A stretch of 64,000 nt of DNA from contig NW_026570221.1 of NCBI RefSeq assembly GCF_019649055.1, positions 3,224,001 through 3,288,000 of the forward strand, written 5' to 3'. Positions 182-57,677 of the stretch are shown here, in pieces. The position numbers and the translations under genes were made by a program. Each line of letters opens with the position of its first letter. Position 1 is the first letter of the stretch. The notes beneath the pieces are model-generated. The model did no database searches. It was not told the DNA's origin and saw only the letters and a list, made by a program, of their open reading frames with translations. This stretch comes from Paramacrobiotus metropolitanus (Eukaryota; Tardigrada; Eutardigrada; Parachela; Macrobiotidae).

Positions 182-3100
182 CTTGTAATGAAACTGGTAC
201 TTGACCTTCAGCGGATCGCCAAGTTGAGCGGATCCACCGACTGTAGCGATATCTGGCACAGTACAGTGTCTGAAAAGCGGGCCCGTAAGCTTTCTGAACA
301 TGTCGTGCGGTGGGATCGAGAAGCCAAAACACTGCACACAAAAGATTACTGTACTGTACACTCAAAATCAAGTACATAGTAGTGCACAAATACAACAAAG
401 GAAAGTGGTGACAGTAGTACTAGTACAATACATCAAATGAAATTATTGGCCAAGGTCAAAAGGAGGGAGGACTTTTGAGAGGGAGGAATTTCTGCGTGGT
501 CAAAAAGAGGGAGGAATTTTTGACGAGAGGGAGGGAGGGAGGAATTTTGATATGGTCAAAAAGGGGGAGAAATTTTTTCGAAATTCAAACGAAATACTTA
601 GGGACCTCGAACCCAGGTCTCCGAGGTCGCCACCAAGATATTCTCATTATATACACAGTTTAAAGGGCTGAGTCCAACTGAAGTAGTCCGGGACCTCGAA
701 CCCGGGTCCCCAAAGTCGCCACCGAGATTTTCTCTTCAAGCGGGCGAGCGAAGCGAGCCCGCGTTTGTAATTCAAGACATGTCGAGGGCTCGATGAAACG
801 GAAGCACTAGTGACCTTTAGGTCGCGACGTGACCTTTGGGTCTCCACAGATTTTCATGGTGATTCCTATACAGTTCGACATGCTGAGTCGAATTAAAGTA
901 CTGGAGGACCATCGAAACCGGGTCCCAGATGTCGCCACCACGGTATGCAACATATATGCACTGTTTGCTTTTCGGAGTCGGACTGAAGTGCTCAGAGACC
1001 TCGGAACCGCGTCCCTCGAACCTGCAATGTTTTAACACCTCACACTAAACTTTTGGTCACCGGATGTCCAGATTTCGGGTTACAGTACCTGAATACATCT
1101 TAAAACTGAACTTCCACTTGTAAATACTTTGCATGTCATTATCTGGAATCCTCAATTTTTAAGCACCAAAATGCTTTAAACCTAAATACATAATCACGCA
1201 AAAATATTTACTCCTTAAAACTTCGCTTTTTTTATTTTTGTTAAATAAAAATAAGTTGTTTAAAATGTTAAGAAACCTAAACAACTATTAACTTAACAGT
1301 TATATTGATAACTGAATCTTCGAACACCAGAACTTCAAGGTCGGTGCATATACAACAACCAAAATAGCTAAAATTGAAGACATCTGGATAGTTCAATATA
1401 GATGCCAAAATACTTTAGATGTGTAGAGTTGTTAATGTCAAAAAGCCTAAGTTCGAAGTAAATAATAGGCCAAATCTCGATTTACCAATACATACTACCA
1501 TCTTCAAATCCATAGGTAGGCTCATTATCTTAAATTAAATCTAAGTAGCTACCAGAAATCCACTTCAACACTGGTCGGGTACAGTAGCCAAAATTCAGAA
1601 CGAATATTATCTGAGGCGTTAATTTGGTTTTCAAAAACTGCGCAAGAACACCGATATATCAGTTCCAATGAATTTATTTTCCTATAGATTTCGTATACAT
1701 CCATCCGCACAGAATGAGTTGTATAAGGATGAGAAGCGATTCGCAACAGAACTTAACTGCCAGTGTTAAGTGCTGAATGAGACGAAACTCAGTCGAACTG
1801 AAATAAATAAAAATCCTAAAATTTTTCTGGCTGCTTAATTAATTTTTATTTTAAAAATCTGAAATTTTAAAGTGTTTCGTGAATTTTGAAGCGGAAATTA
1901 GATTATTTTTCTTAACCTTTCAACTACTGCCCAAATGAAAATCATTTTAACAAAAATTCTGTTTAAAAAAATTTTATTTTCACGTTCAGTTCAAATTTAA
2001 ATTTAAACTTTCGAGCGGATTCCTAAATTTTCCTGGTTTGTTTAGTATCAGTTATTTTAAAAGCACTATTAAGTTTTTTTTAAAACAGAAACTAAAATTA
2101 ATTGTATATTATTTCTTGGATACAGAATAATTCTGTATCTGAGTTATTCATGAGTAAACCACTATAGTCAAATTAAATTGGAAACACGCGATACTGGAAA
2201 GAGAGCACGATGGTTGCAAAACTCCGGCAACAAAACTTTGATGATGCAGCATGAGATGTAAAATGAGATGCTAATCGTTTTTCCATAGTGCTTTAAAATT
2301 ATTTTAAAAAACCTTGGAAAATAACAGGCCGTCCGTACCGCACGTACCGCAACTCCGAGCGCGACGAGTTTTTTGTGCGCAACAACCGGTCGGTGGGATT
2401 TCACGCGGAAGTGAAGGCACCAAGATTTTGGTTTTTTTTCCAGGCTTAAAAATAATTTAAGATTTTTAAAATGTGTTTTTTTAAGAACAAAAAAATGCTA
2501 GATAAGTTGCTTGGTATTAAAACGGTTTACGTACTTATGCGCATTTACATGTACGATTTTAACAAGGTGGTTTATAATGAGAATTTAGATCTACTAGCTG
2601 ACTCTGCAGCTTCAGCGCTTACGTGTTAATTCTAAATGCATTCGTTGCCTTATATATTTTGAATCACAAAACCGCTGCTCGCTTGCCCTAAAAGCGTATG
2701 ACACGTTATGAGACCATACACTAGGAGATACTACATATTATTAGAGATTTCAATGAGTTTTAAAACAAACCGGCACATCAGAAAGTCTCATTATGAAACA
2801 TTGTGTCATGTGTCATTGTGTTACTATGTGTCAAGTTGTCAACCGCAGATAAAAGAAATTGCTGTTAATTTGCTTCCAAAAGTCAGGGTTGCAAATATTT
2901 AATGCCATTTTAGCAAGATTTAATTTTTCCAATGCACTTTTAGAATCCAAACAGTGATAAAATATATAAAAATAAAAATGAATTTATGATTCAAAGCTTG
3001 CGGTAACCATTAAGAAAATTTGATCTGAAATGGGTTTTCGAATTTATCTCTACAGTAGCATTGCATAAGTAATTTGATTAGAACATAATCAGCAAGGACA

Positions 3101-4120
3101 AAAACGTATAAGTTCTAGTTAAATATAATTCGGCATGCTATGTTTTTTGATACTTAAAAGTTTATGTATTTTGAAGTGAATGCCAATTTCAGAAACCCTG
3201 TTTCTGTTAACCAGTTTATATTTACAGTATTTTATTTTTCAGATATACTCAAACACTGTGATCAGAATTTTTACGTTTACGTTTTACGCAATACAGAATG
3301 GTAGAGCTACACAGAAGTAAAAATATTGAAAAATGTGTTATATAATTAAAAACATAATTAGAATATTTAAAATATATTCACAAATGTGTAAAGAAATAAT
3401 TAGATATTTCTAAACTTATCACAAAATACGAATAAGTACATTCAGTAGTATATAGAAATATATTTCAAAATTCAAAACTATATTTTAAAAAAATGCAGAA
3501 ATAGAATAAACGATATTCATTAAAATAATGAGAAATAGTGAAAAAATATTGAGAAATATAACTAATATTGAGGTCGGGTTCGAGGTCGCGGATTCGAGGT
3601 CGCGGAGTACATCAGTTGGACTCAGCCCTTCAAACTGTGTGTATAATGAGAATATCTTAGTGGCGACCCCGGAGACCTGGGTTCGAGGTCCCTAAGTACT
3701 TGATTTGAATTTCGAAAACATTCCTCCCTCTTTTTGACCATATTAAAATTCCTTCCTCCCTCTCGTCGAAAATTCCTCCCTCTTTTTGACCACGCAGAAA
3801 TTCCTCCCTCTCAAAATTCCTCCCTCTTTTTGACCCTGGCCAAATTATTTGGCTTATTATTGGCCACCGACAATGTCACTGGTAAAAATAAAAATTTTCC
3901 CAGTTTCCCAACTTGCACACTTGCCAATTTAATTTAGTAATTTCCAATACCATACAGACAGTCTTTGGTAGGCACCTACTTCGAACGCGTATTCCATGGG
4001 CGAAAACTTATCCCCGTATATCAAGCCATATTCAACACTGGCCTTTGCCCGGTGAGGTAACAACAGGCCATGTAAGCTGATAACGATGGCAGCCACAGCA
4101 GTGGGAAATATTATTGACAT
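182..4120 (-). CDS. Secreted Cys-rich four-exon family, member 1 (exons 1-2; runs off left edge)
   Basis: Exon 1 is 3980-4120 (47 codons): ATG, a hydrophobic signal sequence (AVAAIVISLHGLLL), then a tail ending MEYAFE at a GT donor. Exon 2 is 182-331 (50 codons): it starts with Cys directly after a CAG acceptor and ends KYQFHYK before GTACGT. Boundaries, phases (0, 0) and end motifs match the complete members at 13.2 and 38.8 kb, and both exons are open. Intron 1 is about 3.65 kb because a 3394-bp transposon sits in it; without the element and one target copy it would be about 250 bp, close to the 235 bp in the 13 kb paralog. Exons 3-4 must lie left of the window. The family function is unknown; the protein should be secreted. 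Whether the large intron is spliced out cannot be told here. Confidence 0.65.
448..3841. mobile_element. hAT-like non-autonomous DNA transposon, long TIRs, 8-bp TSD
   Basis: Inverted ends of about 250 bp (448 to about 700, and about 3590 to 3841) start GGCCARGGTCAAAA and are rich in GAGGGAGGAATTTT-type repeats. They are flanked by a perfect 8-bp duplication AAATTATT at 440-447 and 3842-3849. An 8-bp duplication is typical of the hAT superfamily. The subterminal part carries diverged copies of a GGACCTCGAACCCGGGTC-type unit near 600, 690, 900 and 990. The 1.1-3.5 kb interior is AT-rich and I see no transposase, so it is probably non-autonomous. It interrupts intron 1 of the Cys-rich gene on the minus strand. 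Confidence 0.85.
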
Positions 4121-6502
4121 ATTGCCAGATTAAAGGGCGTTTAAACTTAACGATAAAAAATCTTTAAAAAGGTAATAAAGATTCACTGCAACCGTTTTAA
4201 GTTCAGTTGTCCTACGAATATCTGCACGCAACTAGTTTGGTTTTTAGCCTAAGTAGGTATGAAACCGAGCCTCTTGTCAGACAGTGCACCGAATCAGTAA
4301 CCGGCACGGCAACCGCAGTCAGTATTGCTGTATTTGGCGTAGTCGCATAGTGCTAACCTGGAGCGAGGGACGCGCTTTAAGTTGTGGAAAATATGTTTGT
4401 CTGCATTCTTGAATTTTGCTCACTTTTTCCAAGCAGTGTGGTTAGTTTCCCGTAACGCTGCACTTGAGAAGTGCACACGTTAGCGTCCGACATGACTACA
4501 GTTGTAACATCACCACTTCAAAGCACGTTGGCGTGTTGAATTTTGCGTTAACAGCTATTTTTAAGCAGCAGTTTCTTACAACGGAGATTCTTCGTTCAGT
4601 AAATAAAATTATGGGAACAAAATAGTACGAATCGCTTAGTCGGTCCACAGTTTAACAATTTGAAATAAGTGGATAAATAGTTACACTAGGAATACAGACT
4701 CCGTAAAAAAAGGGTTTGCAGAGAGATGCAGCACGTTTCGGAATTGCTGTAGGTCAATAATGGCGTTAACCGCGTCCGCACATTAATAATGGCGGTAATC
4801 CGCGTCTGTACAGGGCACATTGCCACAGAACAACGAAATTAATTAGTCCTTCGATATTTCTGAACACCAGGTCACGTCATCGTGGTCTCTATTTTCGATC
4901 TCACGCTCTCTTTATTTACCTAATCGAACATTACCACAAACCCAACCAATTTACACGATAGTGCAGGTCCATTTCGCAATGCGGATGATTAACTGCGTGT
5001 AATGTATAATACCCATGCCGGGCTATGCGTGATCAGTTGTTAGAAAAAATCGAAGTATCACTGGAAACTATCACAATTCAGGCGGAGAGGGATTCTTCGT
5101 ATTCTAACAGGGGATGAACGGCTAGTTCACCCCTGTGCGCGAACAGAAACGGAAACTGAACGCCAACACACTGCACACTTTATCGCTCTCACATACAACA
5201 CATCAAAGGCCACCGCAGCACCTTGCTGCGGGGCAAAAAGGAAAAAGCATCCAGCTCAGACGACGAAATCTAGCAACTAAAGAATAGAATCTGGTAGATA
5301 GAGAAAAACACGGCAAAAACAACCTAGCAGCCGCCTGTGCGCGGGTGAACGGAGAGGCCACTCCTCCTCACAGTATGTACTTCCAGCGTCGACGTAGTAA
5401 TTCCGGGTGGCCTGCTTATCAAAGTTGAATCCGTATTGACTACAAGCGTTGAAAAGAAGTACACGGTGTTCTGTACGATCAATGGTAGTGATAAGCGAGC
5501 GTTCGTTGCTTTGAACTCAGAGGGGTCACACAAAATGCTAAGAAAAAAAAGGTGGCAGCTTCTGCTCGGCGAATAGTTGCAGACAGATCCAGTATTTGCG
5601 AGGCTTGTTGAGCACAATGGGCTGTTCTACAAGTTTTGACAGCGTCAATGTGGATGCAATTCGGTAAGTCTTTCCACGAAGTCCTTTCTTCTGTGCCCTT
5701 TAACAATCGCGCTAATCCTTGTTCCAAACGGAAAGAAGGTGTGTTACAATTATGAACTTCTCAAGCACGATAATCGCTCTGCGCAAAACATATTGCGGCC
5801 AAGTGGACAGTCTTCTCTAGGCATCGTAAAGCGGAGAACACTGAACTTCGAGCAGTCATTCCGCATCACCCTATACTGCACACTGTTTTTTGACGAATTC
5901 CAGAGATTACCTTTAACAGGAAGTAATCGTATCGACCAGCATCCTGAACGGTGGCACGGGTGTTATTTCGAGCAAAAAGCATCAGATTCAGTGCAGAATA
6001 CCCGAAATCCATTATAGCATAAAGAAAGTGATCTTGGATTCGTCGAACTGCGTAATTTGCCCTTACTTTTGTTGAAATTTGTTTACCTGTAACCTCGAAC
6101 ATAAAAAGTTACGATATAAACCGTGAAAGTTACATGACATTTTTATCAGTTTGTTCGAGTTCACGTGTACAGCAACATTCATAACTGGTTTTCAAAGAAG
6201 GCACTGCACTCGCGAATGCTTGCTAAGCGGACAAGTAACATTATCGTACGGCAGTACGCGGCATCTTTACAAAAAGAATTTGCAAGTAAAATCAGAATGC
6301 AGTTATTAGAAATTTCAAGTGAAGGAATGCATAAAATTAATAGAATAAATATTACTAAATTCATAAAAAATTTAACGATTAGCTACCATAAAAGTATTCG
6401 GTAGCAGAAAGTGGAACGGTTTTCGCCTCATGCGCTGTCGCGTCAATCGCAGAATGCATTTGGGCAGAATCGAAACACAAATATACGATTTGACAAATTC
6501 TA
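4121..6502. other. Intergenic; one doubtful minus-strand exon
   Basis: No clear gene. On the minus strand a strong pyrimidine tract and TTAG acceptor near 5550 precede a 75-codon open stretch ending at 5324. It has a Ser/Thr/Val-rich, extracellular-looking composition, but a second frame is also fairly open and there is no paralog to decide. The 4.1-5.3 kb part and 5.7-6.5 kb part show nothing I can support. Confidence 0.3.
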
Positions 6503-8735
6503 TTAAACAAATGCTACGTCTGTAGGCTCGGTTCCGGTAATTAGTTGCCGCATGAGAACTTCGTCTTCCACTGGCAGTTGGACGGTTGACCAAGGTTCGT
6601 TCCGGGCGGTATCATAAACTTCAACTGAACACACAGCAAGGCCCTCAGAATCCATGCCGCCGCAGACGTATATCTTTTCTTTGACAGCCCAAGCCGAATG
6701 GGAAGCTCGCGGTTGTTGCAGTGGATGCATATACTCCCATGCGAACGTTCTTGTGTTTAAAAAAATACAAGAAGCAGTTGGAGTTTTTTCCTCTGTACGC
6801 GGTTTGACAAGTCCGCCTAGAATGTAAACGTATCCGTCTAGGACAACCATGCTAAAATGGGTGCGGCCATGAGAAAGTAGTTGTACAGAAGATTGCGTTA
6901 AGGATTTCCATTTCTCCGTCATCGTATTATATAAGTCCAGCTGGAGGGGCTCCCATGTTATGCTATGCGCATATAATACGTATCTTCCCTCGAAATTCGG
7001 CGATTGCATAAATACTGTTTCTGCAATTAAAATACGGGCTGATTTTTTTCATGTAACATAAAAACCAATGAACCATGTTTTCTCTGTTTCGCCATTTAAT
7101 CCAAAAATAAAACAGTTTTGAATGCAACTTTTGAATGCAGCTGTGTCGCTCACCCTTCAATGGCAGTTGTCCTGTCAAACTTGGTGTACCCGGTGCGAAT
7201 ATCCCGAGCCAGAAACCGCCATCTACTCGTATTATGGTCAAATCGGAAATAATAAATTATGTCTAAAACTACGACCGGTCTAGTCAACAGTGGGGGCTTT
7301 CTTTGAAGATCAAGGAAAAATGAACGGAGGTATATCGTCTCGTCAAACCAAAGCGAACGCATATTGCCTTCTTGTGTATTCCAGATATGGACTTTTTGTC
7401 GGCTGTCATTCGTAGCAAATCGAATTATTATTTCTTGATTCGGTATCGTTAACTGTGGGAAAAAAATGTCACCCTTGATTGGCATGGGAACATCCAAAAC
7501 TCGAATTCGGTTTGTTGCTGTGTCTATGGTTATCGCTTTGACAATTGTAGAACTTGAACTGTTGGTCAGTAGAACAACGTTGTTATTGCAAGCGGATGGC
7601 AATTTCAGGAACAATCTCTCAGCGGATGTTCTTTCGTTTGGACTTCTGTGCAAGCACAGTCGGACACAAGCTGGCAATGTTTGTGGTATTTTGGGGCAGG
7701 CAAGCGGCACATAACCATCCAATATCAATTCAGCAAATTGACTGTTTGTCCCATTGGCTTTTAAAGCAATCTGGTTTCCATCCTTTTCAAGCAGCTTTTC
7801 CCCAGTCTTGCTGCCAAAGAAATGTTCAGCGATCTCCATCATTATGCAACCTAAACTCCATACATCGGTTTTGCGACCCGGATTGTCTGTTTCAAGTTGA
7901 AAAAATTTTTTCAGCATTTCTGGTGACATGTACCGTACAGTCCCGCGCAGTAGAGATATGTCCCTGGACATAGTGACACTTTCCTGCATATGGACTAAGT
8001 CCTCGACATCAGCGATTAACATTCTCTTATTACCGTTATCCAAGTTTTTCACTAGAACGTTTGCAGGTTTTAGGTCTCCGTGTATTATGTTCTGTTAATG
8101 CAAGTAATTTAAGCCTGTTGCTATTTCTCTGTAGTAACGCTCAACGATTTTGTGGGCTTCGTGGACAGGGATGGTTTCCCTTGCTTCCTCTAAGAAAAAC
8201 CTGAGGTCACCTAGAACCAAATTGCCGAACACAAAAATAATAGCAACCTGTATGCCGAAAAATTCAATATTGACTTACAGCTACAACGCTCCATCATTAT
8301 TTCCACCGTTGTTCCTAGATACGCTGTGGTGATTCGAACTTGATGACAAGCCACAAGATTTTCTTGCCTCAATTCGGTCAGTTGTTTGAGTTTTGTGACT
8401 GTATTCTTCCAGGTTTCTGAATTCGAAACAATATCGGATCGAGCATCAAAGTAAATTGCATTAACGGCAACAACATCGCTCCCGATGTAATCGTTCCGCA
8501 TTGTAATCCTGGCTTTATAAACGACACCAAATGCCCCGCGTCCAATGATTTCATTCGGTAGCCAAACATACTTGCAACTGCTGCCGAACGTTTGGGTCGC
8601 TGATATGTATCTTGTTCCGTTTTCTGTTGTAAGTTTGGCTCCCATTTCATTTAAAAAGAAAATCTGAAGTATTATCTCATCACCGAAATCGTTCACTATC
8701 AAAATAAATTCAAAACATGGCACAGCGTCTTCAGT
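6503..8735 (-). pseudogene. Kinase-kelch protein gene, kinase motifs degenerate, one in-frame stop
   Basis: Three exon blocks read on the minus strand. Block 1, 8735-8279, follows a TTTCAG acceptor and holds the kinase N-lobe with an intact glycine loop (IIGRGAFGVVYKA), but the VAIK lysine position reads VAVN. Block 2, 8210-7154, has the catalytic loop HGDLKPAN, then DVE where DFG is expected, then RGTVRYMSPEM and DVWSLGCIMME. It continues into a beta-rich region. Block 3, 7020-6503, encodes two kelch-type repeats (YVYILGG, IYVCGG). A TAA at 8095-8097 sits in frame just before QNIIHGD, and joining the best GT donor (7153) to the TTGCAG acceptor does not keep the kelch frame. It is therefore either a decaying pseudogene or a pseudokinase with unseen splicing. 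The 5' exons were not found. The family call is firm; activity is unlikely. Confidence 0.7.
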
Positions 8736-10387
8736 CTGAAATGTGACCGTACTGTATTTAATTGCAGCAGATTTATAAAATAATCATAAAGGCTGAAATC
8801 TAATCCCCAAGGATAAAACTGAAGTTCCAGGAATGTCCCATGGCTTTACTCAATAAAGTGCTTATTTTCAAACAAACGGGTAGTAATATTATAAACGTTA
8901 CGGTACGACGAAGTGCGAACATATAGAATGCGATTAAACTTCACGAATTACAATAGCATGGCATGCATTATACAAGTACAAGATATCACTATTGACTTGA
9001 CTGGGTAATCGCAGCAGTTTATCTATCTGTGGCAATTTTCTCTCACGATCTGCAGTTATGTCTCATAAAAGTGTACTTATATCTAATCAGCAATAATTGC
9101 CGCTCAAACTTCTATACGGAATATTTTCAAAACCCGCCGGGAAAATATGCGACTTAGTGTCAGAAAAGTACGCATGTAACCGACAGGAAGGTGGATTGGT
9201 GGATGCTGGACGTTCAATGAGAACCAGTGGTTAACTGGATGATGAGAACCTCTAACTACGTACTAGGCATCAAAAGATATAAAACAGCGAAACTTGCTTC
9301 TGGAATTCCCTTTGTATACAGTACTGAAGCAGTATAACGAAATGAATATAAGAAGTGAGTGCGGTAGATATAAGATTTGCTTAAAAAAATATGGAGAAGA
9401 AGCGGGGACACTTGATCAGGAAGCCGTAAAATTTTGGCGCCCGGCACCACAATGACGGTAATTAGGCCAATTCAGGTGGTACGGGGATAACCCAAAATTT
9501 GGAAGATGACAGTGCTTTTAGTGATGATGATAAATCACAGAGTATTTTCCGAAAATTATGTGCATTTAAGCATAGTGTGGTTGTAACCGTCCGAGGCTAG
9601 ATAAATGTTACGTATGGCTTTGATGTCACGCATCCACCGTTTTTTGATGGTGCAACAGTAGCGCTTTTGGGCAGCCTGCCGCAATGTGACGCTATTTCTC
9701 AGCAAGATACCTATAATGGCCGTTAACAGAGACATGATTACCAAACCCGGTTATTTGGATACTTCTTTGACCGGAAAAAATATGTTTTGAGTCGAGAGGC
9801 GACGGCTCAGGGTACCCATGAGCAAACCCGTTCTGACTGGATCCGATTTCCTGATCTAGTTCACGACTAACTGCCGGCAGAAAAAAATAGTTTTGGAGAG
9901 GTTCAAGGTTAAGGCACCGCGGAAAACACAACAGTTAGTGCACGTATTGTTACGTGCACGGCACTTCCTAGGCCCGGTTTGTTATTGTTCAATCTGGTTT
10001 CTGATATCTATTGGCAGCACAGTTTGGTGTTTGTTTCAATTGTACATCTCCATATTTCACGGTTTAAGTCTCATCCAAGTACTGTATAACCGTATCACGT
10101 TAGCGTTTAACGTTACGAATAGAGACGGGCAGTGAAGATTTACTAAAAGTTCATTCTATCGCAAAACTTGTTTAATTGCCGAACAAGTGAAAAAACAAAT
10201 AACGGCTGTCCAAAATTTCAAGGTATTCACAAAACAGCAGATCAGAATCAGGAAAGTGGGTTCCGGTACCATATACAGAGAAAAAATTAATAATAATAAT
10301 TGAAACCCGCGCTAGCCGCAATGGTACTCTGTACAACATTTAACAAACCGATGTGATGTTAAATGCAAACCTGGTTGCATAGTGCAG
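8736..10387. other. Intergenic, no supported gene
   Basis: Upstream exons of the kinase-kelch gene may lie here but I could not place them. A 62-codon minus frame at 9556-9744 with a short hydrophobic start and basic tail has no splice or paralog support. The rest shows nothing. Confidence 0.3.
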
Positions 10388-11065: not shown

Positions 11066-11385
11066 CTACAGTATAAAGAAACTAGTGCTTGACGTTTTCT
11101 GACCTCCAGATGAAGTACTAATCGGTGTGATAACCGGCATAGTACACCGTGCATCAGGAAGATCTGCAATATTCTTGAACATGTCGTGCGGCGGAGTAGG
11201 ATAGCTAACGCACTGTACGAAACACGCCTATCAGGGTGGAAAATATTATTATGGACAGTCATTTTTTAATAGACATATACCTCAAAAGCATATTCTAACG
11301 GCAAATCCGAATCAGCCCAGTTACGCCAAAGCGAGCCGCTTTGCGCTATAACCAATACCACAACACCAGTTCTAAAAGCGGCCAT
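11066..11385 (-). pseudogene. Secreted Cys-rich four-exon family, member 2 (exons 1-2 only, degenerate)
   Basis: Exon 1 (11281-11385, 35 codons) begins MAAFRTGVVVLVIA, a signal peptide close to that of the 38.8 kb member (MAAFKAVAVIFAIA). It ends LEYAFE before a GT donor. After a 68-bp intron, exon 2 starts at 11212 with Cys directly after a CAG acceptor and carries PPHDMFKNI, matching PPHDMFRKL of member 1, and a second Cys. Near its end the frame no longer gives the family's FHY(K/T) end; a shifted frame does better, and a TAG closes it at 11066-11068. No exon 3 or 4 was found downstream. I call it a broken copy, although exon 1 and most of exon 2 are intact. Confidence 0.6.
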
Positions 11386-13183: not shown

Positions 13184-14713
13184 ATGTCAGTATTTCCAAC
13201 TGGTGTAGTTACCGTCGCTATCGCGCTAAGCGGTCTTTTGTTGCATAACCGGGCAGAGGGCTTTCTCAAACCTGGTGACCCTAATCCGCCGTTTGAATAC
13301 GCCTTTGAAGTAAGTGGCTATCGAAAGCCTGGGTCTATATTCGCTTTACTTCGAAGTACTGCATTTTGTTTACATTAACATTAATACGGCTGCTTACACT
13401 AGAGTTAACTGCACCAATATTTCATTAGATGATTATTGTGTTGTTTTGAATTAGTGACCATGACCAACCGTTTCTAGTCTCTAGCGGATTAGTTTCGCAT
13501 TTTTTTGTATAAATAATTTGCTTTAACCGCATCATCTCTTTCAGTGTATGGGTTCTTCCACTCCGGCAGAAGCAGCGTTTAATAGGATTAAGAACCGAAA
13601 TGATGCACACTGCACCGACGCGGACATCGCCCGAATCAACACTGGCGATCCATTGAGCGTTAAGCACCACTTTCACTACAAGGTACGTTCAGTTGTGGTT
13701 AAGCGACTTTTACAGAAATTTCTTACGAGCGGATTATATACTGCTGAAACCACAATACCTTTGCTCGAATGCTCGAATGCAGCTCTGTTTATTTCAGTGT
13801 AGCACGAGGTATACAGTCAGCGGACCGAGCAGTCTGAGCTGCGTACCTGATAGGGATTGCGTTGGCTGCATGGCCCCATACAGTGAAGCGATGTGCCAGT
13901 ACGATTCGTTCTCTTTGAGTCGCTTATGGGCGAATTGTACCACGCTTCGTGATGAAATTACCAGGATGGAGACGATCGAGACCGTAGATGATGCTGATCC
14001 AGAATTCGGTGAAGATCTGACGACGATCCCGATTCCAGTTACGACACTGCCCCCTGATTACATCCCGCAACCCGATTACGACCACAATCCTAAACCGCAC
14101 ATCTCAGGTAATACTGCATTTCCAGTCCACAAAAACATAATTACGCAATTTAAGGCAGTATTCCGTTCGCGCCGTATAGTGAGCAATGAGCATATCAAGT
14201 GGTTATGCGTTCATAAAAAAAGGAACGCTTTGATAATCGGTCATCGGTAGTAAAAAGACTGAAAATACGCATAGATGTCGGCTCCACTATCAATTTTAGT
14301 CAATTTATTTTAATTTTCCATGTCCCTTGACAGGTAAGCCATACTGTGACGACGGTAAACCGAGCATGGTCATCCATCCCTGCTTCGTGCCGCCACTCAT
14401 GGTGGTTGTCGACAAGAAGGATTGCCTCCAAAAGGTCACCTGTGGAACCCGTCCGGAAGAGAATGAGCCGTTTAAGGTAAATTTAAGGGCCCCTCCAGTT
14501 CGGGTTAATGTCGGTTCCTGGTCTGGGGAATACTACGACGCCTGGAGCGTCCTGCCTGCACATCCGAAGTATGTCTTGAACAAAGCGATCAATAAGCTGA
14601 CAAACTGCACCAGTGTCACCGGTTTTGACAATGATCAGTGCGGACGGTGTAAAGCCGAAAAGGAAGTAGCCAGACTGTACCGTGACGGATACACGGTGGT
14701 GTTAGCGTGGTGA
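13184..14713 (+). CDS. Secreted Cys-rich four-exon family, member 3 (complete)
   Basis: Four exons, 13184-13309, 13545-13682, 13798-14107 and 14334-14713, give 954 coding bases (317 residues). Introns have GT-AG ends and phases 0, 0, 1. Exon 1 is a signal peptide (TGVVTVAIALSGLLL) with a short acidic/Pro tail ending FEYAFE. Exons 2 and 3 each start with Cys at the splice site. Exon 3 carries CVGCMAPYSEAMCQY and a Pro/Thr-rich end. Exon 4 carries PYCDDGKPSMVIHPCF, a CLQKVTCGT motif and a C-terminal CGRCKAEKEVARLY. The in-frame ATG at 13157 is less likely because paralogs start at the M(S/A) equivalent to 13184. No known domain is recognised. The protein is probably extracellular and disulfide-bonded. 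Its 5' flank matches that of member 4, so the pair arose by tandem duplication. Confidence 0.8.
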
Positions 14714-16080
14714 AAGATTCAACAGCAGCTCGCAATGTAACTGAATCTGCCAGTTCCTTGAAAATTGCTTTTTATACGCTAAAACAGTTATCATGGCTCT
14801 ATGCAGCACGCTTTTTGTTTACACGCGGTCACCTATAGAGAATTACCTTTATACTGTGAGAACTAACCGCACTGTTAGAATACAGCTTTTTGTGTAGAAA
14901 AATTTATGGTGCTGTCAAGCTGTGGAATTACTAACACTGTATGAGAAATTCACATGGTGCGCATCCTTTCGTTGGCAAAAAAATTAACGCAACTCTGTCT
15001 GGCTGAAAAGTATTACACCGCTCAGTATCTTCCGTATTAATTATCTTGGAAAATTCTGTTTGTTGTTAGCACATTACACTGCTGCGTTTAAACAGAAGGC
15101 AGCAATATGCTTTGGTTGATAAAATCCAGTTTACACTTCAATTTAGCAACATTAAAAAAAATTGTTAAATAAAAAATTATAAAATAAAAACCCTGAAATG
15201 GAAGAAAACCTAATCTAAACTTGTACCAGTAAACTTGGAACCGAACTACAGTACATGTACTTCGATTGCAACTCTATTCAACAAGGATCAGTTGCTGGGT
15301 TAAACAAACACATTTCACGGATATACATTTGAGTCTAAAACATCAGCTGCAAGTTTCACAATCTTTTTATACGATGAGTTACTGGTTGCCAGCTCCAACA
15401 ACGAATGCTCTGCAGCCATCATTTTAGTAAAAGATTTTATTTTCCTTGCTAGATTATTATTTATGATTAGATCACTTATTTTACATATATGCGGTCGTTG
15501 GATAAAAGTGTTTGAAACTATTAGTTTTGAAGTTTTCGTGCTGGGAAAGTATCCGAGTACGTGGGTGATCGGTTGTTCATAACTTGTGTTCGTAGTGGAC
15601 CTCACTTTGTAGAAACAATCGGTTATTGAGAAAAGCCAAGTACGGAGCGGAAAAAATCTGTTATGAAGAAACTGTGACCCGACACTACCTGGCATTGCGG
15701 GAATTCAGCACGTTCAGGCAATGTAAAGTGGGCATGATTAGGCACTTTCAACTGTATTCATGCCTGGTGCCAACTTGTGCCTGTTTCAAGTGCTACCTCC
15801 GCGAAACCACCTTCAAGTCTGGAAAAATGTGAGCGAGATTCATAAAAATATTTTCAGCCACTTGAAACGCGCCCCTTGTTCCAGGTGAGTGCTACGTGAT
15901 CGCCTTGTCGAATAACTGGAATACTGATTGTGATTTCGTTGCTGAATCGGTATTATAGTTGACACGGTGATCCTTGTCCCATACATATTTAAGGCCCAGC
16001 ACAAAACGAAGCCGTTATCTTACTTGCCACGTCGCATTACGGTGATTTGTTTTCATCTTTTACAGCAAGTGTTATTAAAC
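14714..16080. other. Intergenic; upstream block of next Cys-rich gene
   Basis: The segment 15626-15900 matches 12700-12960 (shared CATTGCGGGAATT and AAGTGGGCATGAT). It is duplicated promoter-proximal sequence of members 3 and 4. Nothing else is supported. Confidence 0.45.
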
Positions 16081-18161
16081 ATGTCAGAACTTCCAGCTGG
16101 TGTGGCTGCCATCATTACCGCTCTCAGCAGCCTACTGTTACTTAATGGGCAAACGGTTGCGGATGAAATCAATGGTAATCATGACACGGTGTTCCAATAC
16201 GCGTTTGAAGTAAGTGAATATCAAATGACCATAAAATTCTCGGTTGATTTACTTACATAACTGTACCACATTCCCTTTTATACAGTGTGTAGGATCCTCC
16301 GTCACTCCGAGTGAGATGTATCAACAGGTGCAAGTGGCAGCGTGCTTCGTCTATCCACGGAGGTGTCCAGCGGGATATTGCAGCGAGGCAAATATCACTA
16401 AAGTCGAGGGTCCGATTAATGCCACGTACCAGTTTCATTACACGGTGGTCCAGTTATGTACCGTGGTTGAAGTATAAGAGGAATTGCGCATTTGGCGAAG
16501 CCACCCTGAGAGAGCACTCAATAATATGTAAATGGCTTTCGTCGTTTTTTTTTTAATTTCACTGAGTAAGTACAGTACCTAGTTCTCGTTAGGGTACCTA
16601 ATCTGTTTTCTTTGGCCCGCCGTTGTTTTAAGACACACTTCAGTGATTTATGGGAAAGGGCTCCGAAATAGTAATTAGAAGATCGTATGTTTAACCAAAG
16701 CAGTCGAGTTTCATGAAATGTTACAGGAAATTTTATTGGTAATATTTATTTGTTTGTGATTTGTAATTTATTTCATTATTTTAAAGATAACTTCATAGAG
16801 ACATGAACTGCGGTCTTTCTTTTAATTCAGTGCGAACGGACGTACACGAGAAGCTTACACCCGCCGCCTGAGCCGCGTTGCGTGCCGGATAATCGTTGCG
16901 TAGCCTGCTACAGCATGTACAGTGAATCTCTGTGCCAGTACCGGCTATTCACCATGAGTCGCTTCTGGAATACTTGTACCCCGCTTTATAATGAAATGAC
17001 CAAGTTGGAGAAGATTGACAGCTTAGAAGAATCTGAACAGGTTTACGAAATGATGGCCGACCCCGCTTATAGCAGCCTTCCTACTCCTCACATCTCAAGT
17101 ATTAACGTATATCCGTTCAAGAAACCTTTGTGCTGTTTGTAACAACAGTTTCCACAATTTATTACGTAAATGAAGCGCAGCCGAGTAATTTACTTTTATA
17201 TGTTTAAATTAAGCGTAAAAAAGAACCTGTAATTACCGGGCTATTTTTTACCTTTTTACTAGTTTGTTGGTCCGGCGGAGCGGAACGTTTCTTTAAATTC
17301 TCCTTTTTGTTGACAGCTAAACCGTATTGCGACAACGGCAAACCAAGCATGGTCATCCACCCATGTTTCGAGGCGCCGCTCATGGTGGTCATCGATAAGA
17401 TTTCCTGCGTCCAAAAGGTCACCTGTGGAACGCGTCGGGAACAGAATGTGCCGTTCGGTTTATGGTGGAGCGAGGAAGATTGGCGCCATATTGGCGACTG
17501 GTATGGGCCACTCCGCATCGTCTGGGACAGGCGGCACACCGACAACTCGCTGACGACTATCCTGCTGACCGACAACTTGCTGGCGACTTTCTGCTGACCG
17601 ACGAAATGTTGACCCGACAGTTGGTTGAAACGACAAATCGCTGAACGACATTTCGCTGAACGACTTTTTGTAAACACCGACAACTTGCTGCCGACAAATT
17701 GCTGAATTGAGAAACTCAAGAAACCTAAGAAACCTAAGAAACCTAAGAACCCTAAGAAAACTAAGAAATCTAAGAATAAACAGCAAAAAGTTAAGAAAAC
17801 TCAAAAACTAACGTCCCGAACTTGACAGCAAGTTGTCGGTCAGCAAAAATGTTTCAACAAAACGTCGGTCATCAACTTAGCCGAAACGCAAATTGTCGGT
17901 CAACAAGTTGTCGGTCAGCGAGTTGTGTAAGTCAGCAACATGTCGGTCAGCAAACGGTCGGTCAGCAAATTGTAGGTCGGCGAATTGACGTGCTACCGGG
18001 ACGGGCTGCCCGCGCGGCCGAAATTCTTCTTGAAGAAAGCGATGGAGAAGCTGGCTAACTGTACCAATGTCACCGTTGTTGACAAAGAACAGTGCGATCG
18101 ATGCAAAGCTGAGAAGGAAATTGCCAGACTGTACGAGGTCGGACACACTGCTAGGCTGTAG
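16081..18161 (+). pseudogene. Secreted Cys-rich four-exon family, member 4, split by a transposon in exon 4
   Basis: Exons 16081-16209, 16286-16444, 16831-17098 and 17317-18161 follow the family plan with phases 0, 0, 1. The signal peptide is AGVAAIITALSSLLLL; exons 2 and 3 start with Cys; exon 4 starts with KPYCDNGKPSMVIHPCF. A palindromic element of about 470 bp (17529-17997) lies in exon 4 between codons for VWD and GLPARPK and brings stop codons. The element plus its flanking repeat is 474 bp, a multiple of three, so the remaining end of exon 4 (18003-18161, with CDRCKAEKEIARLY) is open in the same frame. The gene was intact until this insertion. As it stands the protein would end inside the element. 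The exon 2 donor is a weak GTGGTC. Confidence 0.75.
17529..17997. mobile_element. Palindromic element with GTCGGTCAGCAA arms and a 9-bp tandem core
   Basis: The left arm repeats GACAACTTGCTGACCGAC-type words, the right arm their reverse complement (GTCGGTCAGCAAGTTG). The centre (about 17705-17770) is a tandem array of CCTAAGAAA. GGGAC flanks it on both sides (17524-17528, 17998-18002), and the 8-bp flanks agree at 6 of 8 positions. The same ends and core occur at 36163-36682. There is no coding capacity. Confidence 0.75.
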
Positions 18162-19540: not shown

Positions 19541-20489
19541 GCGCCGTATATTCCGCTAACTGTTCTAGACATTTTACCTGCTTTCTTTTCACATTTTCCT
19601 TGAGTAAGTGCTTTCCTTTCGAATTAAACAGATATGAACAGCATGGCATTTCCCCTCAATTTAACAAGCGAATCGTTTCCTTGGCTGTTTTCTAAGTTTT
19701 ATTTGCTACCGTTCTACATGCCGGTTGCCAGTAACGTCAAATTCTATCTACCGTATAAAGGCCCCATTTCACTACATATACGCTTGTAACTTTTCCTGTA
19801 ATTGCATGCTGAGCGCTTGCTGTGGTCCTGCATAAATTAATGATAAATCGAATAGTTTTCAAGAAATACATATCCGTAGATATATACATGTATCTGTACC
19901 TTCTTACAGTTTACAGTTTACGGCCATATTAGTAACATGGTTAGAAATCAGAAAGGCACAGAAGGATACCAACAACGCTGACCTAATAAAGCTTCTAAAA
20001 TTGTATAATTATGAAGCCGACTGCATCTTTGTCTTGTTACGTTCCTAACACCCGAAGAGAAATACTTTTGACAGTTTAATTATTCGCACACCGGATAAAG
20101 CGCTTTGTTGTCTTATGATCATTTTATCGTTGTACTGTCGCAAGAAAAGATCGCATAGCGATGACGATATCGGTAACCGACATTTAGAAAAAAGCTTCCA
20201 AGCGCACGGAGCTGAACGTTTTCATAGTACAGCCTTTTTGTCAGGAGCCAAGTTATGTACCCGTATTACAGGATGCACGTCACTCAATGAAAAACATGAC
20301 GGTTGTTTGAACGCGTTGTTAGCACATCCAAGTGTTTGCTTGCTCGGAACAGCATTTGCGCATCAAAGGAGCACAGATACAGAGACATATCAGGTTAATC
20401 GCAGCACAGTTTCGTGGAACCGGTTCAAATCGAACATCGCAGTAAAGCTGCTTTCTCTCTAAAGGAGATTTTGTTGGTATAATTTAAAA

Positions 20490-22237
20490 ATGGAGAACCA
20501 TACACTGTGGTTCTTGAATCATTCCAATGACAGCAAAACCAACGTCTCTCTCATCGCTGCTCCGTCCACTAATGTAATGTTACTGACAACCGACGTTCTG
20601 ACTGCACTGGGCATTATTTTCAACGCTGCTATAACCATAATGTTTTTTATATTGCCTGAACTGCGGACGCCCTTTTCGGTGTACATGATATTCCTGTTTC
20701 TTTCCAACATTATCCTCGATGCTGCCATAATTGTGGAGATCATCCTGCCTGACGTTATATTATTGCCTGTATCTGTGGGGAGTCTGCTTTACTGTTTCTT
20801 CTCAGATTGGATCGGATCGGTTATGCAAAGTCTTCCCATGCAACTGCATTTCGTTATTGCTTTAAACCGCTTATGGGCGCTGGGATTTCCCATGTCTTAT
20901 GCTCGTCTACACACGAAAAGTATAGCCTGGATATGCTGCTTGGCGGCTGTGGGTTGCGCACACGTCGTAACTCTCCCGTTAATCCTTTTGGATGCGCTTG
21001 TCTACGCACCACAAGAGCAATTGTGCGTGAGGGCAATTACGAGGGCGCCATTACGTTACTATGCGCAAACGCTGCAGATACTTACTATTAACGTGCCTGT
21101 GGTGAGCATCATTGTGTTATATCCGATCGTATTCGTACTGTATCTGCGCAACCATAAAAGAAAACGCAGAATTAGGGAAGAAGTGAATCTAGAGTTGAGA
21201 GTTCAGCCTCAGAACCAGTCGAGCAGCCGTGATATCGCATTTATAAGCCAAAAAAGTGCTACTTCACACGTCCCCGATGTGCTACATGAAAAGGTAGGGA
21301 AGGTAACCTTTCCAGAGATAAGATATATTAAGTGTCAGTCAGAATTTGACAGGACTTGTAACGACTTAACAAGCTCTAACGGCATGAACAGGTGAAATAC
21401 TGGAAACGTTGTTTAGCTGAAAAATAAGAGGTACTCAGCATGATGTTCCTCGCTGTTTAACGCAAGTGCTCCGGTATTCATCACTACATTCGCTTGCATG
21501 TGCAGAAACGCTCGCATTCGCGCACTGACATTTTTGTCCATTGTTTTGTGCCCATGTGTACTAATCTTCTGGCTACAGCAAACCATAAGTAACATGCAAA
21601 AAGTTTTTCTGAATACGCGAAAGGAGAATTTTCCGCATGTAACACGAATTCAGTTCTTTGTGCTGGCACACTTCTCTCAGCCAACTATTTGAACGTAATT
21701 ACCGATAATAGTGTACTTTCACGCGACGATTTTGCGCGAACTTTCATATCAAGCACTGCCGTGTGGACTGTGAGGCAGCCGGCAGCGCTGATGAGCTGCA
21801 TGCGCTGCGGTCTGCAAAACTTAATGGAAATTCCTTTTTGATGCACCATTTTCTCGAGTATAGTATTCAGTACTATCGGTACAGACAAGCGTTAGCAAAA
21901 ACTTTGAAGATTCGCTTTCCATGGATGTTTTTTATTGCAGGCGCGCCAGCGAAATCCCTCTACGAAATCCAAGGGGCGCATTCGACCATTCGCCTTGTAC
22001 ACGCTGCTGACTCTTTCGACAATCATCTGTTGGTTCCCTGGCCTTGTAGCGTGGAATTTAGCTTACTTTGGCCGGCCAGGAAGCGCATGGAACACCATTG
22101 ACCCGTTGGCCGCAGACATGCTAATGCTACTGCAACCTGTTGTGGATCCAGTGCTATTCGCATTCAGCATCCAACCGGTTCGGAATGCTTGTGCTGGTGG
22201 ACTGATGAAACTGACCCGGCAGTGTAAACCTAAGTAA
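20490..22237 (+). CDS. Class A (rhodopsin-like) G protein-coupled receptor
   Basis: Two exons, 20490-21293 and 21941-22237, joined in phase 0 across a 647-bp intron, encode about 366 residues. Seven membrane segments can be followed. The N-terminus has several Asn-X-Ser/Thr sites. TM1 has the conserved Asn (GIIFNAAI). TM3 follows a Cys (LLYCFFSDW) that can pair with a Cys in loop 2 (EQLCVRA). NRLWA stands in place of DRY. TM4 has its Trp, TM5 its Pro and Tyr, and a long basic loop 3 contains the intron. TM6 has CWFPG and TM7 has DPVLFAF in place of NPxxY. The ligand is unknown; the changed DRY and NPxxY motifs suggest a lineage-specific chemosensory or orphan receptor. The 5' flank (about 20240-20460) is shared with the copy at 23.8 kb. 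Confidence 0.85.
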
Positions 22238-23848
22238 TTCCGAAAGACGTTTTTTAGCCCGTGCGGCCTGTTGCTGATTAATTTTATTTTACCGTACTGG
22301 AGTCGAACAGGGTTTATGGTACCAATGAAAACATGAATGAACAGTAACAAGCGTAATAATGTACTGTAATGTATGTTTATTGTCTTATGTGTGTTACATG
22401 CCACTTTTCGTCTTATACATGTGCGCCAATGTTCCGCTGGTAGTCCCGTCACTCTCTGTTTTACGGACAGATAACCTTTGAAGCGTCGAAAGTAGTTTCC
22501 GGTAAGCCATATTTCGACACAGACGAGAAGGAAAGGACGAGTATTTTCTCGACCCTGTAAATCATAAGCTGTTAAATCATAGTTGCAATGACGAACCTGC
22601 ATCGCAAGCCAACCTGCACAGCTTGAAAGCCCATCAAAATACTGAACAAGCTATTCAAGCTTCGATGCTCACTTTGGCTTTTTGGCCGCCCTTTTTACCA
22701 ACCGGTCATCTCTAATATGAAACTGATCTCTAATTATTTCGAATGCGACAGTTCATCGTATACGAGCTCGGCGTGATAATTACTTTCGTCACCTACAGGA
22801 CAACGATCTGTAGATCTCTACTCTGACCTAACTAAAGATAACTGTTCCAAAAATTACACAGATTCGGGCTTTCTTTTTATTGTTACCCGTATCTTTACAC
22901 GGCTACATCTATGACCTTTACGTTATCCCGTAACAACGATGTTTGGTCGTTTAATACCGTAAGCTGTATTCTGCACAGATCGTAAAGTCAGAATGATTCC
23001 ATCATTTCCGCCAGAAGCACACTACCACAAAATGAGACCGTCTAGCCACATGCCAATGCATTCAGTTCACAACATTTCCAAGGACATTCTTTTCCGTTAT
23101 CACACTTTCCAACATACCACCCAAGACTATCGATACACTTCCCATGACAAATGAAAGTTAGTTATGCAATAGCATGAACAACAGGTGCACGCGCCGGTCA
23201 TGCGCATCCACGCATCCACACGCGACTGGCAGCGCGTTGTTAGTATTAGCGGTTCCCCTTGGGACGCGTTATCAGCGTTATGCGGCTAGCATTATAGCCT
23301 AGAAATGGCGTTTTTGTTATTGGAACCAATAACGCACTTTCAATCCGAAGCGTTAACCCAGAAACAGCTATTTAAACAGTGCATTCAAACGATGGCACAT
23401 TTGCAGTGATTTTCTTCATTTCCGTTCCTACCACCACAAGACTTTTTATAGTTGTATTTTGTTCGCCACGAGCGATGAAATTTTATTGTTCTTTGTTTCC
23501 TCTATTTCATTCACCGTAACTGCCGCGTTTACGGATCGGATTGCAAGGGCGATATCAATTACGAATATTTAGAATAACTCTCTCGAGTGCAAACAGCGCA
23601 ACCTATTTCATCTTACAGTCGTATTCTCTGTGAGGTTTAAAGAGACCGGGTTACAGGATGGACGTCACTCACTTAAAAACATGACGGGACTACTGAACTT
23701 GCTGTTTGTACACCAAACCGATCAAAGTGTTTGCCTCAAAGATACACAAAAATATTAGATTAGTCGTATCGGATCATTTGGAGCCGGTTCCAGTCGAACT
23801 CGACAATAAAGCTGAATTGTCTCTAGTTTTTGTTTGAATCATTTGAAA
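22238..23848. other. Spacer between two tandem GPCRs
   Basis: The segment 23620-23830 matches 20240-20480 (shared GGACGTCACTCA and CAAAGTGTTTGC words), so the promoter-proximal DNA was duplicated together with the receptor. The remainder shows no gene. Confidence 0.45.
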
Positions 23849-31056: not shown

Positions 31057-31235
31057 ACGTGTGATACATTTGATTATACAGCGATCAACAAGCTGGATGC
31101 CTGCATAAATGCAGCAGACCATGTCCCAGTTGTTATCAAGGGTGAGTGTGCGGTCGCTGTAAGACAAAGAAGGTACCAAACAGACTTCACGAGATTGGGC
31201 AGGCAGTGGAGTTATTAAACACTGTACAATGCAAG
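31057..31235 (+). pseudogene. Secreted Cys-rich family, exon 4 remnant
   Basis: The segment reads AINKLDACIN in one frame (AINKLTNCTS in member 3). After a shift at about 31145 it reads CGRCKTKKVPNRLHEIG, matching CGRCKAEKEVARLYRDG. It is thus the frameshifted 3' part of exon 4 of a seventh family member. Exons 1-3 and the start of exon 4 were not found nearby. Confidence 0.6.
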
Positions 31236-38768: not shown

Positions 38769-40179
38769 ATGGCAGCATTTAAAGCTGTTGCTGTGATCTT
38801 TGCTATCGCGCTGAACGGCTGGTTCTTGCGTGACTGGACAGTAACTGCTTATACTGCTCCACCAATCGAATACATCTTCGAGGTAAGCATCTCTTACCAC
38901 TAGAAATGCCATTAGAAGTTTTTCTACTTTGAACGGTTTATTGGCCCGATTACCTTCCTACAGTGCGATAGCTCTCCTACTAACGAAACGTACAAAAAGA
39001 TTACCGATCTCCGTGGCGCACGATGCAGTGAGCCGGTGACCACGCTAATTACTAAAGGAAGCCCGGATAACGTCAAGTATCAAGTCCATTACACAGTAAG
39101 TTCTGCCACGTATCGCGGCGAGGCGGCTAGCACCTCGGTCCCTTTGTCGGAGCGGGCAATCTGCCGACGCGGCAGTCTTTTGGACTACACTATGTCTCTA
39201 GCATAATACATCCCTTGTTGACGAAAATGTTTGCATTACAAAATCATTGCATTATATACAAGAAAAGCACGCCATAACCATGCTAATTTGGGAAATAATT
39301 TTGAAAAATTGCAACCTATCTGTACTTCGCGTTAAACACCTCATTCTGGCTTCGCAGCACAATAATTCGCGTGTTTTTTCTTAACTATTCAGTGCCAGAC
39401 CCGAGAAGAACCAGTCCAGTGCAATGAAACTCCCAGGGACATCCAGTGCACAACGGGAGACCAGTGCAGGTGTTGCCTGAATGTTGCCATGGAAGCCCTT
39501 TGCCAGGACGAACGGCTATCACTACGGCGTTTTTTGCGTACTTGCAAAAGAGTCTCCCTGCCAGTGACGGATCCCCCAGCTGACCCCGCAGAGGACGAAG
39601 TGACGGTGATTTATGAGGTGCCAAGTGAGATAACTGCAACTACCGTTCCAACGGTCGGGAATCACGTGTCAGGTGACAGCGTTTGTATATTCTAGACCTT
39701 TATGCAAAACCAGAACACCAATAATACTAAATGTGCGTGTATGTATGACAGGTCGACCATATTGCCCCGACGGTAACGACAGTATTCTCGAAGGGAGCTG
39801 TTTCGTACCGGCGCTGATGATCGTGGTAGATAAGGGGAACTGTTTGCAAAAGATTACCGCTGGGGTGCCCACTGAAAAGGTGGCAGGCAGTGATTACACA
39901 GTCAACATCGCTTACTGGTCCTCGGGCCGGCATGAAACCTGGAACGGGCTGTCTCCTATTCCGGCAACTGCCTTTAACACCGCATTACGCGTTCTGGATG
40001 ACTGCAACAAGTATAACGTATGCTCCAAATGCAAAAAACTACCGTTGGTGAAAGTTATAATCGAACAAGGATACGCAGTGCCTACAACCTTGGAGGAAGT
40101 TGAGACCAACGATACGACTACGCCCTGGGCGCCGATTCCCTCCGCGTGGAAGCAGCCTATTTATCCTACGCATTATTGA
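38769..40179 (+). CDS. Secreted Cys-rich four-exon family, member 5 (complete)
   Basis: Exons 38769-38882, 38964-39095, 39393-39672 and 39752-40179 give 954 coding bases (317 residues), the same total as member 3. All introns are GT-AG with phases 0, 0, 1. Exon 1 is a signal peptide (AVAVIFAIALNGWFL) ending IEYIFE. Exons 2 and 3 begin with Cys. Exon 3 is richest in Cys (CQTREEPVQC, CTTGDQCRCC). Exon 4 carries PYCPDGNDSILEGSCF, CLQKITAG, an IAYWSSGRHETWNGLSPIP stretch and a Thr/Pro-rich tail. The tail replaces the short C-terminus of members 3-4, while the CSKCKKLPLVKVI part is kept. No known domain; probably secreted and disulfide-rich. A small divergent membrane frame lies upstream. Confidence 0.8.
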
Positions 40180-56956: not shown

Positions 56957-57677
56957 TGCGACCCGGTGCAACCAGACCAGTCAGTGCAGTGCCGTAACAC
57001 CCCCGGTCCATGCAGTGCAAACCGGAAAGCCAGTGTACCTGCTGCAAGGTCTTCATGCAAGAAAGCGTCTGACAGAGTCTCCGGTTTTCTCTAAGCCGTC
57101 ATTTGGATACTTGCCAGATAATCACAGAGCCGACCCCTTCCTCGCTGTGGGCGCACTAACAGCCACAATTCCTGTGGTCCCGCATCAAAATTCAAGTGAC
57201 AGCAGTAGCCGATTGAAGAAAGTTCTGTAAAAGAGAAAAGCAGTAAATGGGTGTATGTGTATGTCTGACAGGTAAAACGTTTTGTCCCGACAACGACAGT
57301 ATTCTCGAGGGGAGCTGTTTCGTGCCGGTGCTGATGATTGTGTAGATAAGTGGAACTGTTTGCAGAAGATCACCGCCGGTGCGCCCATTGGAAGTGTGGC
57401 AGGCAAAGATTACGCAGTCAACATCGCTTACTGGTTCTCGGGCCGGCATGAAACCTGGAATGGGTTGTCTCCTATTCCGGCATATGCTTTTACCACTGAG
57501 CTAAGAGTTCTGGATAACTGCAGCAAGGGGAGAGGATGCGATGAGTGCGGAGACCTAGCGTCGGTGAAAGTTCTAATCCAGAATGGATGCGCAGTGCCGA
57601 AAGACTTGGAGGAAGTTGAGTCCAACGGTACGACTACACCCTCGGCCCCGTTCCCGATTCCCTCCGCCTGGAAGTAG
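56957..57677 (+). pseudogene. Secreted Cys-rich family, member 6 (exons 3-4, broken)
   Basis: The exon 3 remnant starts at 56957 with TGC directly after the MITE and its TTA duplication, and is related to exon 3 of member 5. Exon 4 (57272-57677) matches member 5 closely: NDSILEGSCF, CLQKITAG, RHETWNGLSPIP and a Thr/Pro tail ending in IPSAWK. One base is missing in the stretch GTGTAGATAAG (member 5 has GTGGTAGATAAG), giving a TAG at about 57343-57345 and a shift. Exons 1-2 are absent and the MITE occupies their place. The 3' flank also resembles member 5, so this is a segmental duplicate of the 38-40 kb locus. Confidence 0.75.

What the first reader, a model, noticed from the sequence alone, without database searches (positions are those of the whole stretch)
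13184..18161. Undescribed secreted Cys-rich protein family with a fixed four-exon gene plan
At least seven loci in 64 kb (0.2-4.1, 11.1, 13.2, 16.1, 31.1, 38.8 and 57 kb) share one plan. Exon 1 is a signal peptide ending in an (E/Q)Y(A/I)FE motif. Exons 2 and 3 each begin with Cys at the splice site. Exon 4 carries PYC, CF and CLQK(V/I)T motifs and a C-x-x-C end. Intron phases are always 0, 0, 1, and the two complete members have equal coding length (954 bases) despite strong divergence. I recognise no known domain. Rapid birth and death suggests a role in recognition, defence or secretion.
Basis: partly seen in the sequence, partly recalled or inferred. Interest (0 to 1): 0.8.

Follow-up and report, generated by a model that had tools for sequence, protein, structure and literature searches.

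The report
New tardigrade secreted cysteine-rich protein family
A water bear genome carries an unnamed family of apparently secreted, cysteine-rich proteins in clusters of duplicated genes; they match no named protein domain, and what they do is still a guess.

Summary
Gene A (13184-14713) and gene C (38769-40179) are complete four-exon genes, intron phases 0,0,1, 954 coding bases each. Gene B (16081-18161) has the same plan, but a dispersed ~440-base repeat breaks exon 4. The family extends beyond the window: about 37 places on five contigs carry an exon-4 match, remnants included. Of 25 candidates laid out, 11 could be modelled completely; all 11 have phases 0,0,1. A distant C131 branch (25-30% identical in exon 4) shows the same exon 2/3/4 boundaries. 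The equal 954 bases are coincidence: complete members run from 837 to 1029. Pfam, NCBIfam and PDB give no credible match. Assembly figures fit the tardigrade Paramacrobiotus metropolitanus.

Exon 1 looks like a signal peptide. Some cysteines co-vary, suggesting disulphides. Purifying selection dominates (omega about 0.5); evidence for positive selection is mixed. A recognition or defence role is plausible but unproven. Structure predictions failed. A new family of a familiar kind.

The parts
13184..13309 (+). Gene A exon 1: signal-peptide exon, ends ...FEYAFE, donor gtaagt, phase 0
13545..13682 (+). Gene A exon 2: begins and ends at phase 0, first codon Cys, ends HFHYK
13798..14107 (+). Gene A exon 3: first codon Cys, six Cys in all, then an acidic Thr/Pro-rich linker; phase 1 donor
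14334..14713 (+). Gene A exon 4: C-terminal module (KPYC, HPCF, CLQKVTC, CxxC) and stop
16081..16209 (+). Gene B exon 1
16286..16444 (+). Gene B exon 2, with an inserted loop carrying two extra Cys
16831..17098 (+). Gene B exon 3
17317..17540 (+). Gene B exon 4, part before the inserted repeat (edge approximate)
17541..18000 (+). Dispersed ~440-base repeat breaking gene B exon 4 (edges approximate); copies up to 95% identical elsewhere
18001..18161 (+). Gene B exon 4, part after the inserted repeat, with stop (edge approximate)
38769..38882 (+). Gene C exon 1
38964..39095 (+). Gene C exon 2
39393..39672 (+). Gene C exon 3
39752..40179 (+). Gene C exon 4
3980..4120 (-). Exon 1 of the member at 0.2-4.1 kb
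182..331 (-). Exon 2 of the same member; exons 3 and 4 lie left of the window
11281..11385 (-). Exon 1 of a two-exon fragment
11108..11212 (-). Exon 2 of the same fragment (matched part)
5676..5852 (-).
31078..31214 (+). Exon-4 tail remnant, marginal score
57001..57132 (+). Exon 3 of a decayed member related to C (internal stop)
57274..57677 (+). Exon 4 of the same decayed member (two frames)

Best explanation
The finding is a tardigrade multigene family of secreted, disulphide-stabilised, two-module proteins, and its most likely role is extracellular binding in defence or recognition of microbes or other non-self. Shown by sequence: one gene plan (signal-peptide-like exon 1; a Cys-bounded exon 2; exon 3 with an N-terminal Cys module and a variable linker; exon 4 with a C-terminal Cys module), about 37 exon-4-bearing places in clusters, several decayed copies, and a Cys framework kept while other residues drift. 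Inferred: exon 1 sends the protein out of the cell; paired Cys form disulphides holding two rigid modules joined by a flexible linker; loops between the Cys diversify after duplication, giving a set of related soluble binders. The ligand and the tissue are unknown.
For: Eleven complete models, phases 0,0,1 in 11 of 11. A hydrophobic core near the N-terminus in 11 of 11. Twelve Cys are invariant in the 11 members, although median pairwise identity is 0.31 in exon 3 (190 pairs) and 0.45 in exon 4 (171 pairs). The extra CxC Cys of exon 3 occurs with an extra early Cys in 13 of 13, against 1 of 6 without it. Under M1a about 47% of codons fall in a class with omega 0.23. In ten paralogue pairs, 36 of 40 exon comparisons but only 5 of 30 intron comparisons exceed shuffled identity by more than 0.08. 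LRR genes lie among the copies on C1 and C131.
Against: No ligand, expression, splice or protein data. Positive selection is not robust (p = 0.22 in the five-gene clade). The Cys co-variation rests on about three changes on a poorly resolved tree, and the independent-pairs test cannot reach significance. Some members have an odd number of Cys in exons 2-4 (A 15, m3350 17, k69c 19). The LRR linkage is about p = 0.035 once the window cluster that prompted the test is set aside, and five of seven clusters hold no LRR copy. In k69a and k69d a 19-residue stretch after residue 30 scores 1.85 and 1.92, high enough to be a possible membrane segment.
Confidence: 0.4

Rival explanations
1. Reproductive secretions: seminal-fluid, egg-coat or spermatheca proteins evolving fast under sexual selection or gamete recognition.
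For: The likely species has separate sexes, and genome bins enriched in male-biased transcripts have been reported (PMC11191345, passages read). Secreted, duplicated, diverging families are typical of this class (recalled).
Against: The passages read do not name this locus or family. No sex-specific expression data were available here.
Confidence: 0.22
2. Feeding or digestive secretions from salivary gland or gut.
For: Secreted, Cys-rich, tandem-duplicated families are common in gland secretions of other invertebrates (recalled).
Against: No credible similarity to any Pfam or NCBIfam family, so to no protease, lipocalin, inhibitor or venom family held there.
Confidence: 0.17
3. Structural extracellular matrix proteins of cuticle or eggshell, cross-linked through cysteines.
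For: Odd Cys numbers in A, m3350 and k69c could allow intermolecular disulphides.
Against: The alignment shows no internal repeats or matrix-type composition by eye (not computed); no chitin-binding domain in Pfam.
Confidence: 0.12
4. A largely decaying family: most copies are relics and the complete ones are not expressed.
For: In the window only 2 of 8 places are complete; breaks by a repeat, stops and frame breaks.
Against: Eleven complete four-exon frames, omega about 0.5, and intron similarity lost while exon similarity persists.
Confidence: 0.06

Closest known systems
SAHS, secretory abundant heat-soluble proteins of tardigrades
   Same: Tardigrade-specific, secretory, locally duplicated in clusters (passages of PMC5531438).
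   Different: SAHS are lipocalin/FABP-like and not built on a disulphide framework (recalled). No lipocalin-type Pfam hit here.
Lineage-restricted secreted Cys-rich multigene families of ecdysozoans (general kind, recalled)
   Same: Signal peptide, conserved Cys, tandem duplication, turnover.
   Different: No sequence relative found in the libraries searched; the four-exon plan and the PYC/HPCC/CLQK/CxxC module match none of them.
Spaetzle-type cystine-knot cytokines
   Same: Secreted, Cys-rich (recalled), with orthologues in tardigrades (PMC5531438 passages).
   Different: No Pfam match for any of 11 members.
CDtoxinA (PF03498) and Zn_Tnp_IS91 (PF14319)
   Same: Weak single-member hits, E 0.0046 and 0.027.
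   Different: 1 of 17 members each, below the gathering scores (17.0 vs 22; 14.9 vs 26.3): read as chance.

Membership tests
This four-exon Cys-rich family (A and B with C and the genome-wide members) | Four exons, phases 0,0,1, Cys codon at acceptors 1 and 2 | tested here: met
   11 of 11 complete models out of 25 candidates laid out; exon 3 starts were sought with a Cys-codon pattern, so that feature is partly by construction. In the C131 branch exons 2-4 of one gene were read by eye and exons 3-4 of another
This four-exon Cys-rich family (A and B with C and the genome-wide members) | Secretion signal in exon 1 | tested here: met
   Hydrophobic core 2.00-3.15 near the N-terminus in 11 of 11; hydropathy only, no trained predictor
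This four-exon Cys-rich family (A and B with C and the genome-wide members) | Disulphide pairing of the conserved Cys | tested here: inconclusive
   Co-variation 13/13 vs 1/6, Fisher p 0.0005, but about 3 changes on the tree
SAHS / lipocalin-like | Lipocalin or FABP fold, by sequence profile | tested here: not met
   No such Pfam hit up to E = 1 for 11 members; the fold itself could not be tested, models poor
Spaetzle | Spaetzle cystine-knot domain by profile | tested here: not met
   No hit
CDtoxinA | Profile score above the gathering cut-off | tested here: not met
   17.0 vs 22 bits in m3302 only, 1 of 17
Prokaryotic or viral gene by transfer | Relative in bacterial/archaeal genomes, viral contigs or phages | tested here: not met
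   None confirmed: 0 of 16 pattern matches in viral contigs, 0 of 39 in genome contigs, no phage match with exon 4 of A
Orthologues in other tardigrades | Same plan in Hypsibius or Ramazzottius | not testable with these tools
   The genome tool states that this genome has no relatives held

The most novel reading that the evidence does not exclude
Two new extracellular domains (N- and C-terminal Cys modules of unknown fold) form a diversified soluble recognition repertoire that works together with the linked LRR family, a tardigrade-specific arm of immunity.
Probability: 0.1. Interest if true: 0.75.

Novelty: new member of a known kind. Interest (0 to 1): 0.42.

Why it matters
About 37 exon-4-bearing places encode, or once encoded, proteins that none of the family libraries searched names. 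A defined family with exact gene models and a Cys framework gives tardigrade biologists something testable: expression, localisation, response to microbes, and presence across the phylum. If the recognition reading is right, it would add an effector layer to a phylum whose immune mechanisms are described as largely uncharacterised (start of the abstract of PMC7056985, seen in the listing).

Tried and rejected
Known domain: Pfam on 11 full-length members and 17 exon-4 sequences, NCBIfam on 11, PDB by one single sequence and two profiles. The best PDB hits (RPB9 at E 0.4 and 0.93; a designed repeat protein at E 0.02 with no stretch passing on its own) were rejected as chance.

Structure: AlphaFold2 of exon 3 (3 rows, pLDDT 51.8) and exon 4 (5 rows, pLDDT 40.6) was too poor, so no fold search was run.

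Transfer from bacteria or viruses: nothing confirmed. Missing first exons: a regular-expression search in seven partial loci found no exon 1. It recovered exon 1 of m3350, put in as a control, but missed the exon 2 of m3205 and k176 that the HMM had found, so it is insensitive; these loci are left as partial. m3329 was left out of the complete set because exon 3 has no clean start or donor. Positive selection: not robust. LRR linkage: suggestive only (one search stopped with an error). One search put the minus-strand loci the wrong way round and was redone.
Full report
The organism. The window is C1:3224001-3288000 of a 169.8 Mb genome in 533 contigs; contig C1 is 4,484,719 bases. PMC11191345 (passages read) gives a reported 170 Mbp genome and a longest scaffold of 4.48 M for the tardigrade Paramacrobiotus metropolitanus. 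I take that as the species; the fit is by assembly figures, not by a marker gene.

The two complete genes. Gene A: exons 13184-13309, 13545-13682, 13798-14107, 14334-14713. Gene C: exons 38769-38882, 38964-39095, 39393-39672, 39752-40179. All introns are GT..AG, phases 0,0,1, and each coding sequence is 954 bases. A and C are 33% identical. Gene B has the same first three exons, but exon 4 is interrupted near 17541-18000 by a repeat with relatives on many contigs (68 matched pieces; 40 of 696 first-look candidates scored; best copies 95% identical). So the stated interval 13184-18161 holds one complete gene and one broken one.

The family. Genome searches with A and C gave 64 and 40 exon-level matches at E <= 1. 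Exon HMMs on the fetched DNA, a consensus exon-4 query and a C131 query together show about 37 places with an exon-4 match: 19 in C1:3.20-3.35 Mb, 2 at C1:3.03 Mb, 1 at C1:3.485 Mb, 4 on C69, 2 on C97, 1 on C176 and 8 on C131. This is my tally from those tables. It includes remnants, one of them (31.1 kb in the window) of marginal score; it leaves out hits such as C97:558272 (E 0.54) and C6:179139 (E 6.3); and by the tool's own statement such counts are lower bounds. A few more places showed only exons 1, 2 or 3.

Gene plan. Of 25 candidates laid out, I built complete models for the 11 in which all four exons could be read (m3030, A, C, m3323, m3326, m3333, m3350 on C1; k69a-d on C69). All 11 have phases 0,0,1 and start exons 2 and 3 with Cys; coding lengths run from 837 to 1029 bases, so the equal length of A and C is coincidence. 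One intron has a GC donor (m3326 intron 2). This was not a blind test: I chose boundaries knowing the proposed plan, and sought exon 3 starts with an AG|TGY pattern. But every frame stays open across three joins, and similarity follows the exons: over ten paralogue pairs, 36 of 40 exon comparisons exceed shuffled identity by more than 0.08 (mean excess 0.14), against 5 of 30 intron comparisons (mean 0.04) (one search is an earlier run without shuffled exons). For the pair A and C alone, DNA similarity of exons is hardly above shuffled (-0.01 to +0.10); their kinship rests on the protein level. In the C131 branch one gene (L066) shows an exon 2 opening with Cys and ending HHINYT at a donor, and exons 3 and 4 joined at phase 1 (read by eye); L065 shows the same exon 3/4 junction with a Thr-rich linker. 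L066 exon 4 has a frame break.

Secretion and cysteines. Exon 1 holds a hydrophobic core of 2.00-3.15 (12-residue mean) in 11 of 11; after residue 30 the best 19-residue mean is below 1.6 in 9 of 11, and 1.85 and 1.92 in k69a and k69d. Mature proteins are acidic (net charge -2 to -9, using the first cleavage candidate) and have 15-19 Cys in exons 2-4. Across 19 exon-3 sequences scored by eye (C131 and B left out), the extra Cys of the CxC motif occurs with an extra early Cys in 13 of 13, and 1 of 6 without it has the early Cys (Fisher p 0.0005). On the exon-4 tree this is only about three changes, and the independent-pairs test cannot reach significance, so it suggests rather than proves a disulphide. 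In exon 4 the PYC and CLQK cysteines are missing together in m3205 and m3217 (sister genes, so one event); the second Cys of HPCC and the Cys of LCG are missing together in C, m3291 and the 57 kb copy, but A, B and m3228 lack only the first.

Selection. Nei-Gojobori dN/dS of the 18 closest pairs runs from 0.41 to 1.05 in exon 3 and from 0.33 to 1.24 in exon 4; some distant pairs have low pS, so dS is not fully reliable. One-ratio omega is 0.53 for all 11 (212 codons), 0.53 for the K clade (5 genes, 236 codons) and 0.48 for the 3323 clade (3 genes, 257 codons). M1a against M2a gives p = 0.0018, 0.22 and 0.005 (likelihood code of my own, not PAML). For all 11 the tree length is 9.7 and four of five candidate sites lie in an exon-3 loop of uncertain alignment, so I do not claim positive selection. 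The sites most surely constrained include all 12 Cys that are invariant.

Tree. The exon-4 tree of 19 rows is poorly resolved: 3 of 16 inner branches starred, 11 open. The firm groups are two local pairs (m3205/m3217; m3329/m3333) and m3302/k176 across contigs, which fits tandem duplication with some dispersal.

Known families. Pfam, NCBIfam and PDB searches gave nothing credible. No relative was confirmed in viral contigs, prokaryote genomes or phages. Structure predictions were unusable. Eight paper searches, some with far more hits than were listed, showed no paper whose title or abstract start describes this family; I read passages of three papers (PMC11191345, PMC5531438, PMC7056985) and none in full. 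Supplementary tables were not searched, and other tardigrade proteomes could not be.

Neighbours. The cluster also holds an LRR family (at least 121 matches genome-wide) and Srx-like GPCRs (at least 129 matches). Whether the LRR proteins are secreted was not tested. LRR copies lie inside 2 of 7 clusters of the Cys-rich family; with the window cluster set aside, the chance of at least one more is 0.035. That is a lead, not a result.

Judgement. The functional reading remains inference. The most likely role is soluble extracellular binding in defence or recognition (0.4), with reproductive and feeding secretions as the main rivals.

Noticed in passing
window 32377-33366(-), 34441-35517(-), 50544-51647(-), 61325-62341(+): Four copies of an LRR protein family (LRR_8 hits, two at or above the cut-off; at least 121 matches genome-wide) interleaved with the Cys-rich genes, and again on C131.
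   Followed up: partly
window 20463-21395(+), 23816-24397(+): Srx-like chemoreceptor GPCRs, one open frame of 310 aa and one partial copy; at least 129 matches genome-wide.
   Followed up: partly
window 26946-30021(-): Retroelement: reverse transcriptase frame 27811-30021 and a tyrosine-recombinase-like frame 26946-27950 (weak PF00589 hit, 18.6 vs cut-off 27.1); DIRS-type by this pairing (label recalled).
   Followed up: no
window 6503-8783(-): Neighbouring frames with Kelch motifs and protein kinase domain pieces; possibly one gene with introns or a broken one.
   Followed up: no
window 17541-18000: Dispersed ~440-base repeat with weak matches between its own halves on opposite strands, copies up to 95% identical: a MITE-like element (label recalled).
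   Followed up: partly
L066 1463-1926 (C131): Exon 4 of a C131 member shows a single frame break; decay or a sequencing error.
   Followed up: no
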